A stretch of DNA of 64,000 bases from Tubiluchus corallicola (taxonomy: Eukaryota; Priapulida; Priapulimorpha; Priapulimorphida; Tubiluchidae): the NCBI GenBank assembly GCA_030141605.1, contig JAQGDQ010000141.1:424501-488500 (forward strand). Reading direction: 5' to 3'. The notes beneath the pieces are model-generated. The model made no database searches. It saw only the letters and a program-made list of their open reading frames with translations, and was not told the DNA's origin. Made by a program: the position numbers and the translations under genes. This document shows positions 19,901 through 22,900 of this stretch, piece by piece; positions within the stretch are counted from its first letter, which is position 1, and each line of letters starts with the position of its first letter.

Positions 19901-22900
19901 CTTTTTGCAATTTGTTAACTTAGTTAACAGGAAACTCGAAGTAAATACATGTATGCGGTTTTGTTTTGAACGCAGTAAAGCAGCTTCTTGTGACTAGTAG
20001 TTACCATGTAATTGCCGATTCCAATACGACACGGTTTAGTTTGTAATTTGCACGTAGATTCTCGCTCTATCATTTCTCTTTTTTTAAAAAACTGTCTAGC
20101 TTGCCGTATGTTTTTTAGAAAGGAAAATACGTTTAATAGAATGCGGGTATAATTATCTCATATTCAGATTAAGAGTTATTTTATCTTCTGTAATTATAAA
20201 TATCATTTATAATTTACTTACTTATAATTAATCATTTATAATTATATTTATAAATATAAATACGCAATAAATATCAAGCACGTGTACAAAAAAAGAGTAT
20301 AGAGAAAAGGTGAGAAAAGAAACCACATAGCAAAGCAGCCAATTTTGTAGTTAAAGTAACTCATAGTTAAGAACTTCTTGGGACAAATTAAGCTGAGGAC
20401 AAGCATACAAATAAATAATTGTCGAACAGAAAAGGTATATAGCTAAAATCTTAACAAGCAGACAAACGAAATTGCAGTTTTAATTAACTTACTATAGTAA
20501 CTTATAAAATGATCATAAAATAATCCACAATCGGCAAGATCAGACATCGAGGTCAGGTGGACAACAGTAACGAGGATCGCATCAGGATTTTTCTATGATC
20601 GGACATCACTGGTTGCTACTTGATTTCCTTTCAAACAGTGTCCTGTCGCAATGGGTATTTTAATTTCTAATTTTTTGTCGTCTTAAATTTTTAATTTCTG
20701 CCCACTTGAAATTCTTAATAGTTTGTGCATACAGTGGCATAAAAACCACGTTCTATTCATTGCTGTTCTATTGACTTTGCCTAGATGACAACTTTTTCCG
20801 TTGAAAGGCCTACAGACTCCCAACCAACATTAGTCATTCTGAAGTACATTTGCCGTCGAAAGCCAGGAGAGTGCATACAGTTCTTCAACATATTGCTAAA
20901 AAAGTAAGTGTTGCATTCTGTGCTGTATTGAGCATATCTTTTGCGGTCATTTTTTCCACCTTAATAAAGACAGTTGAGGAAAATTTTTGCTCCATTCATG
21001 TTCACTCATTATACTTAACTATTGAGAAATCTATAATGTTACTTTTAGGGTGATGAGAGCTCTGAAAATGGTAGAGGTAGGTCGACAACATTATGACCCG
21101 AGTAACCATGTGGAACTGCAACAACATCGCCTGGACATATGGCCAGGATATGTAACTTCTATCCAGGAATTCGAGGGCGGACTCATGTTGCAATTAGATG
21201 TATCACATCGCGTATTACGCACACAGACTGTATTAGAATTGATGTAAGTACCAAGTTGACAGACTGTATTAGAATTGACGTAAGTGCCAAGTTGACAGAC
21301 TGTATTAGAAATGACGTAAGCACCACGTTGACAGACTTTATTAGAATTGATGTAAGTACCAAGTTGACAGGCTGTATTAGAATTAACGTAAGCACCAAGT
21401 TCACAGACTGTATTAGAATTGACGTAAGCACCAAGTTGACAGACTATATTAGAATTGACGTAAGCACCAAGTTGACAGACTGTATTAGAATTGATGTAAG
21501 TACCAAGTTGACAGACTGTATTAGAATTGATGTCAAGTACCAAGTTGACAAGACTGTATTAGAATTGATGTAAGTACCAAGTTGACAGACTGTATTAGAA
21601 TTAACGTAAGCACCAAGTTGACAGACTGACTGTATTAGAATTGACGTAAGCACCAAGTTGACAGACTGACTGTATTAGAATTGACGTAAGCACCAAGTTG
21701 ACAGACTGTATTAGAATTGATGTAAGTACCAAGTTCACAGACTGTATTAGAATTGATGTAAGTACCAAGTTGACTGACTGTATTAGAATTGACGTAAGCA
21801 CCAAGTTGACAGACTGTATTAGAATTGATGTAAGTACCAAGTTGACAGACTGTATTAGAATTGATGTAAGTACCAAGTTCACAGACTGTATTAGAATTGA
21901 TGTAAGTACCAAGTTCACAGACTGTATTAGAATTGATGTAAGTACCAAGTTCACAGACTGTATTAGAATTGACGTAGGTACCAAGTTGACTGACTGTATT
22001 AGAATTGACATAAGCACCAAGTTGACAGACTGTATTAGAATTGATGTAAGTACCAAGTTGACAGACTGTATTAGAATTGACGTAAGCACCAAGTTGACAG
22101 ACTGTATTAGAATTGACGTAAGTACCAAGTTGACAGACTGTATTAGAATTTATGTAAGTACCAAGTTGACAGACTGTATTAGAATTGATGTAAGTACCAA
22201 GTTGACAGACTGTATTAGAATTGATGTAAGTACCAAGTTCACAGACTGTATTAGAATTGATGTAAGTACCAAGTTGACTGACTGTATTAGAATTGACGTA
22301 AGCACCAAGTTGACAGACTGACTGTATTAGAATTGACGTAAGCACCAAGTTGACAGACTGTATTAGAATTGGTGTAAGCACCAAGTTGACAGACTGTATT
22401 AGAATTGATGTCAAGCACCAAGTTGACAGACTGTATTAGAATTGGTGTAAGCACCAAGTTGACAGACTGTATTAGAATTGATGTAAGTACCAAGTTGACA
22501 GACTGTATTAGAATTGATGTCAAGTACCAAGTTGACAGACTGTATTAGAATTGATGTAAGTACCAAGTTCACAGACTGTATTAGAATTGATGTAAGTACC
22601 AAGCTGTCAGACTGTATTAGAATTGATGTCAAGTACCAAGTTGACAGACTGTATTAGAATTGATGTAAGCACCAAGTTGACAGACTGTATTAGAATTGAT
22701 GTAAGCACCAAGTTGACAGACTACTGTTAACCGTAAAAATGCCACAGTTACAGTTATGCCCGCAATGTCTGTAAATTTTGCAAGAAAGGATTCCAGCCAA
22801 CATGAATATGAATATAACGCAACCACCCAAGAACCGTGTTTTTATTAAATGAATGACCACCGTTTAAGGATAAGTAAACATCTTCCAGGTAATGACTTTA

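What the first reader, a model, noticed from the sequence alone, without database searches (positions are those of the whole stretch)
21223..22723. A minisatellite built from a gene's own 5' splice site, about 41 copies, inside a piwi intron
Seen: the first 36-bp unit straddles the exon 7/intron 7 border, and the array repeats it about 41 times, so about 20 exact GTAAGT donors, each with the same upstream exon bases TTAGAATTGA, sit in a row behind the true donor. In the exon frame each further unit gives TAA at once, so only the first donor yields full-length Piwi; all others would truncate before most of the PAZ domain. Inference: the array could bind U1 snRNP, tune splicing or act as a length-variable brake on this gene, or simply be tolerated because exon definition picks the first donor. 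I know of no described case of this form.
Basis: partly seen in the sequence, partly recalled or inferred. Interest (0 to 1): 0.8.

Follow-up and report, generated by a model that had tools for sequence, protein, structure and literature searches.

The report
Repeat array grown from splice site
In an animal piwi gene, the junction where one exon ends has been copied head to tail about 41 times into the following intron; this is a real but previously described kind of repeat (called a mirage in lancelets), similar arrays sit at other genes of this genome, and it is most likely tolerated rather than a control device.

Summary
Window 21223-22722 is a 41-copy, 36-bp minisatellite. Its first unit holds the last 21 bases of a piwi exon plus the true 5' splice site at 21244. 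Splicing that donor to the acceptor at 23487/23488 gives a protein that aligns without a gap in the five Piwi alignments shown. Any later donor brings in TAA at once. Twenty units keep an exact GTAAGT.

It is not undescribed. Tandem repeats spanning exon-intron borders are known in lancelets as 'mirages' (Adh, globins, TnC, PGBD5) and are reported there not to disturb splicing. In this genome I fetched 23 other donor-motif array loci. In 10 an open coding frame runs into the first donor; four match a protein family over cut-off (phosducin, dynein heavy chain, Frizzled-type, zinc finger), one below it (Maestro HEAT). Over ten arrays only 7 of 201 later donors keep frame without a stop. Donor copies show no consistent difference in conservation from the rest of their units.

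Best reading: a slippage-born array at a splice junction, tolerated because the outermost donor is used. Donor use itself is untested (no RNA). The regulatory 'U1 brake' idea found no support here.

The parts
   Evidence: phmmer to solved Piwi proteins; ends read
21223..21243 (+). exonic part of the first repeat unit (21 nt)
   Evidence: TRF start and donor position
21244..21249 (+). true 5' splice site GTAAGT (first donor)
   Evidence: joined protein; 8 of 11 positions pair with a U1 5' end found in L056 of this genome
21223..22722 (+). 36-bp minisatellite, 41.2 copies, 20 exact GTAAGT
21223..21229 (+). ACAGACT, left copy of the 7-bp direct repeat at the array ends
   Evidence: read
22716..22722 (+). 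ACAGACT, right copy; the array ends here
   Evidence: read
21244..23487 (+). intron (2244 nt), about two thirds of it array
   Evidence: donor and acceptor
23488..23677 (+). open frame of the next piwi exon (start of PAZ); its exact donor was not tested

Best explanation
A mirage-type minisatellite. A short tandem duplication of the exon-intron junction, probably between two nearby ACAGACT words, grew by slippage or unequal exchange to 41 units. Because growth lies downstream of the first unit, the exon and its donor stay intact. Splicing uses the outermost (first) donor, and the whole array leaves with the intron. Shown: the anatomy, the coding outcome of each exact donor, and recurrence at other genes of this genome. 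Inferred: which donor is used, the route of growth, and neutrality.
For: The first donor gives a Piwi protein that aligns gaplessly in five of five printed alignments; all later exact donors give an immediate stop. Exons with the catalytic D (VGIDVYHD), D (FRDGVSDSQ) and H ([11 protein letters not shown]) are present, so the gene looks intact (the motif reading is recalled). Similar anatomy at other genes: an open frame runs into the first donor at 10 of 23 fetched loci, with Pfam matches over cut-off for phosducin (8.7e-7), DHC_N2 (2.9e-8), Fz (2.7e-12) and zf-C2H2 (3.4e-14), and HEAT_Maestro_2 below cut-off (7.7e-5). Minisatellites are common here: 8 arrays, 5.8% of bases, in 72 kb sampled. 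Donor hexamers are more variable than the rest in 4 of 10 arrays and less in 6, mean rank fraction 0.50. Lancelet mirages are reported not to disturb splicing.
Against: No RNA was available. I recall from splicing work (not read here) that of two equal strong donors the one nearer the 3' splice site often wins, which would predict use of a late donor. In piwi and in the Maestro-like array the donor hexamer is more variable than the rest (0.093 against 0.041; 0.101 against 0.000), which could hint at donors being lost there. Adjacent piwi units are not more alike than shuffled ones (1568 of 5000 shuffles as low), so local slippage leaves no clear trace. The direct repeat at the ends could also be no more than a partial last copy.
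Confidence: 0.8

Rival explanations
1. Functional donor array: the copies bind U1 snRNP, hold it on the transcript (against early polyadenylation or for intron retention) and tune Piwi output by copy number.
For: 19 of 41 units, the first included, have the top score of 8 Watson-Crick pairs with the U1 5' end found in L056.
Against: Donor hexamer 0.093 changes per site against 0.041 in the rest of the piwi unit, and no consistent preference over ten arrays. The plain GTAAGT triple is hardly more common than its reversed control (19,441 against 18,738 placements). The same anatomy lies in unrelated genes.
Confidence: 0.06
2. Later donors are used at a low but real rate and make truncated or decayed transcripts, a poison-extension output.
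For: 18 later units tie with the first in U1 pairing; every later exact donor leads to a stop.
Against: Lancelet mirages are reported not to give aberrant mRNA. No sequence evidence here for use.
Confidence: 0.1
3. Assembly artefact: copy number inflated or collapsed.
For: A lancelet mirage was reported as apparently aberrantly assembled in a draft genome (PMC3087553).
Against: 25 distinct units among 41; no N in the window; donor-motif arrays on many contigs. Existence is safe on this evidence, exact number is not.
Confidence: 0.04

Closest known systems
Mirage minisatellites of lancelets (Adh, globins BflGb6/BflGb9, troponin C, PGBD5)
   Same: Tandem repeat spanning an exon-intron border; units carry the splice signal; either border can be duplicated (this genome also shows acceptor-side arrays). 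PMC3087553 gives 10-72 bp units for Adh3; ours is 36.
   Different: Other gene; 41 copies, against 6 and 3 in the two BflGb6 haplotypes; host species not identified; splicing and length variation not measured here; no exclusion of the border unit seen.
Internal tandem repeats at exon-intron boundaries in human duplicated genes (PMC2812944, passages)
   Same: Minisatellite (mean unit 30 bp) at exon-intron boundaries.
   Different: About 4 copies on average, and there they can make novel introns; here an intron with its own acceptor outside the array exists.
Intron gain by tandem genomic duplication (e.g. the potato case PMC4974935, seen in a search listing only)
   Same: Tandem duplication within a gene.
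   Different: Here the acceptor lies about 765 nt beyond the array, so the array is not itself the intron.

Membership tests
Mirage-type minisatellite | minisatellite-like tandem repeat spanning a true exon-intron border | tested here: met
   (border by protein homology, not RNA)
Mirage-type minisatellite | splice signal present in many units | tested here: met
   20 exact GTAAGT and 15 GTAAGC of 41
Mirage-type minisatellite | regular splicing not disturbed | not testable with these tools
   no RNA; only coding outcomes
Mirage-type minisatellite | length (also somatic) instability | not testable with these tools
   one assembly only
Mirage-type minisatellite | concerted evolution inside, border units excluded (reported for BflGb6; a property of one case rather than a definition) | tested here: not met
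   adjacent units no more alike than shuffles; the first unit is identical to 13 others from position 2 of the cut on
Mirage-type minisatellite | cephalochordate host | not tested
   species unnamed; no COX1 match in the assembly; GC 35.8% in 72 kb sampled
Intron born from a tandem array | donor and acceptor both lie in array units | tested here: not met
   acceptor 23486-23487, array ends 22722
Dispersed or mobile repeat | unit present elsewhere in the genome | tested here: not met
   12 matches, all in this array

The most novel reading that the evidence does not exclude
In this genome, arrays with up to 47 exact donors sit behind exon ends of conserved genes, so its spliceosome must follow a strict positional rule (the outermost, first-transcribed donor wins over dozens of equal downstream rivals). 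These arrays would then be a natural titration series for how a cell picks one of many equal 5' splice sites, and border minisatellites would be a general, possibly non-lancelet, route of intron change.
Probability: 0.2. Interest if true: 0.7.

Novelty: new member of a known kind. Interest (0 to 1): 0.42.

Why it matters
As a single locus it is a member of a described kind of repeat. As a set it is useful: ten loci with 3 to 47 exact donors in a row, where use of nearly any donor but the first would wreck the protein; piwi and four others rest on protein matches over cut-off, one on a match below it, four on open frames alone. RNA from one animal would say directly how donor choice works when rivals are equal, and whether copy number costs anything.

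Tried and rejected
Uniqueness of the kind: rejected. Enrichment of plain GTAAGT arrays: rejected, 19,441 against 18,738 reversed-control placements. Full-consensus motifs are more common than controls: MAGGTAAGT 419 against 62 reversed; a dinucleotide-matched permutation gives 106 against 105 for its own reversal; CAGGTGAGT 151 against 8; DAGGTAAGT 969 against 65. But placements overlap, so they do not count arrays; the 100 listed DAGGTAAGT rows are mostly one dispersed 42-bp satellite; and real donors themselves raise the motif count. I draw no selection claim from this.

Negative rows kept in the count: of 23 fetched donor-array loci, 13 gave no accepted coding exon (L006, L008-L013, L019, L024, L025, L026, L031, L032). 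L026 has an 85-aa open frame that runs through array sequence; its part before the array has no Pfam match. L019 and L032 gave no donor-array TRF row, and L006 none under. L022 and L029 are copies of one gene. C217, C467, C555 and C1357 rest on open frames: C1357 gave only ZU5 at E 0.061, below cut-off, the other three nothing; C1517 was not searched in Pfam. For C217 the first unit-like stretch lies before TRF's start and was placed by eye.

Control: a frame of 48 aa or more (cut chosen after seeing the data) runs into the motif at 10 of the 20 donor loci that evaluated (L026 among them, L005 with its 30-aa exon not) and at 1 of 10 control loci. Pfam found nothing for four control frames (51, 34, 32 and 23 aa) and for donor locus L013. 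The 11th fetched control (C66) was dropped because the contig ends there; other listed control arrays, C2093 among them, were not fetched. The 18 sampled places were picked by hand on contigs known from earlier calls.

Species: COX1 search found nothing. Paralog: the Piwi-like gene on C2195 has no intron at this position by eye, which says nothing about the array's age. The original Adh mirage paper (PMC117041) is not held.

Full report
Observation. TRF finds a 36-bp, 41.2-copy array at 21223-22722. Cutting it at TATTAGA gives 41 units, 25 of them distinct as cut, with 20 exact GTAAGT, 15 GTAAGC, 4 GTCAAG, 1 GTAGGT and 1 ATAAGC. The first unit begins 21 nt before the end of a piwi exon. The exon (21049-21243) matches Piwi proteins. 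Joined through the first donor to the exon starting at 23488, the 128-aa product matches 18 PDB sequences, the best being Piwi-A of 7kx7 (E 1.2e-42; a sponge protein by recall); the five alignments printed, three to proteins named Piwi or Piwi-A and two to Piwi-like protein 2, are gapless. Three listed chains (9s0z, 5guh, 6kr6) have matched ranges that differ by 1 or 2 residues and were not printed.

Consequence of the copies. The donor is in phase 2, so any extension reads ATG TAA: none of the 19 later exact donors is reached without a stop. Eighteen later units equal the first in pairing with the U1 5' end (8 of 11 positions). The U1 end was typed from recall and found in the U1 gene at L056; 9 of 11 listed U1 matches score over the family cut-off.

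Is it one of a kind? The array sequence is found nowhere else in the assembly, but the kind recurs. Pattern searches for three consensus donors in a row list many arrays. I fetched 23 loci: 10 of the 12 contigs listed for MAGGTAAGT, all 11 contigs listed for CAGGTGAGT (one of two arrays on C555), and C32 and C92 of the 12 contigs listed for DAGGTAAGT. Each list shows only the first 100 placements. In 10 of 23 an open coding frame runs into the first donor: C5, C217, C173, C338, C467, C555, C975, C1357, C1517, C32, with C467 and C1517 copies of one gene. Pfam gives phosducin for C5 (I joined its exons; exons beyond the array continue the protein), DHC_N2 for C173, zf-C2H2 for C975 and Fz for C32, all over cut-off, and HEAT_Maestro_2 for C338 below cut-off. 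C1357 gave only ZU5 at E 0.061, below cut-off; C467, C555 and C217 gave nothing; C1517 was not searched. On C975 the zinc-finger exon has a donor-side array (29 copies) and also an acceptor-side array before it, and a second acceptor-side array stands at what looks like the next exon.

Do the extra donors matter? In ten such arrays (piwi and nine others, C1517 left out as a copy) there are 211 exact GTRAGT donors, each within 400 nt of the one before, 201 of them later than the first. Fourteen are reached without a stop and 7 of these keep frame: 5 in the Maestro-like gene, 1 in C467, 1 in the Frizzled-type gene. The Maestro-like array is therefore the exception in which repeats could be coding. 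Donor hexamers are more variable than the rest of the unit in 4 of 10 arrays (piwi 0.093 against 0.041; Maestro-like 0.101 against 0.000; C217; C1357) and less in 6; the mean rank among same-size windows is 0.50. Taken together this fits no selection to keep donors; in piwi and the Maestro-like gene some loss of donors is possible.

Background. In 72 kb from 18 hand-picked places, 8 minisatellite arrays cover 5.8%; in the 64-kb window the piwi array is the only one by the same rule. Full-consensus donor arrays exceed their controls, but since real donors are a main source of these words I take this as a sign of seeding at donors, not of function. Frames of 48 aa or more, a cut chosen after seeing the data, run into the motif in 10 of 20 evaluated donor loci and 1 of 10 control loci.

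Known precedent. PMC3087553 (passages) describes minisatellite-like tandem duplications of exon-intron boundaries, 'mirages', in lancelet globin genes, cites Adh3 with 10-72 bp units, says that Adh3 data and globin RT-PCR suggest no interference with regular splicing, and notes length and somatic instability. PMC3902484 (passage) adds troponin C and PGBD5 and says that the Adh and TnC mirages do not generate aberrant mRNAs. PMC2812944 (passages) reports repeats at exon-intron boundaries in human duplicated genes. The statement that no such case is described is therefore wrong. My ten answered paper searches did not ask for piwi, so I make no claim on whether this very locus is in print.

Mechanism. 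Most likely a duplication between the two ACAGACT words (21223 and, now, 22716), then growth by slippage or unequal exchange. Growth behind the first unit leaves the exon and its donor whole, so it is invisible to the protein as long as the outermost donor is used. That last step is inferred. It is not trivial, since I recall (not read here) that with two equal strong donors the one nearer the 3' splice site often wins; PMC5585400 (passages) shows that the choice depends on bound factors such as SRSF1. Order within the array shows no local homogenisation.

Verdict. A sound observation; a new member of a known kind; function unlikely. The added value is the set of similar loci in one genome.

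Noticed in passing
L027/L036 (C975), joined and oriented 923-1351 and 2610-2899: Zinc-finger exon flanked by an acceptor-side array (69-bp unit with TTACAG|GTTCATGAAAGAG) and a donor-side array; what looks like the next exon start (EKPFRC) is also repeated with its acceptor.
   Followed up: partly
window 2206-2256 and 2728-2871; many contigs: A dispersed 42-bp satellite (TAGGTAAGTCAAATGTAGACACAGGAAAGTTCAAATGTGACT) carries a donor-like word; the window repeats resemble it by eye, no alignment run.
   Followed up: no
L018 (C2195): A second Piwi-like gene lacks, by eye, an intron at the position of the array-bearing intron and has introns where the window gene has none.
   Followed up: partly
L021 (C338), end of the array: The Maestro-like array is open and frame-keeping for its five later exact donors and is followed by inverted copies of the unit (by eye); the repeat could be coding.
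   Followed up: partly
C555:40912-41491 (-) and 68256-68835 (+); C17 and C38 likewise: Mirror-image array pairs on one contig: inverted duplication or assembly fold-back.
   Followed up: no
L011, L012, L026, L031: Arrays on four contigs share, by eye, a GTTTGGTACAGGTAA-like 15/30-bp motif, a possible dispersed minisatellite family.
   Followed up: no
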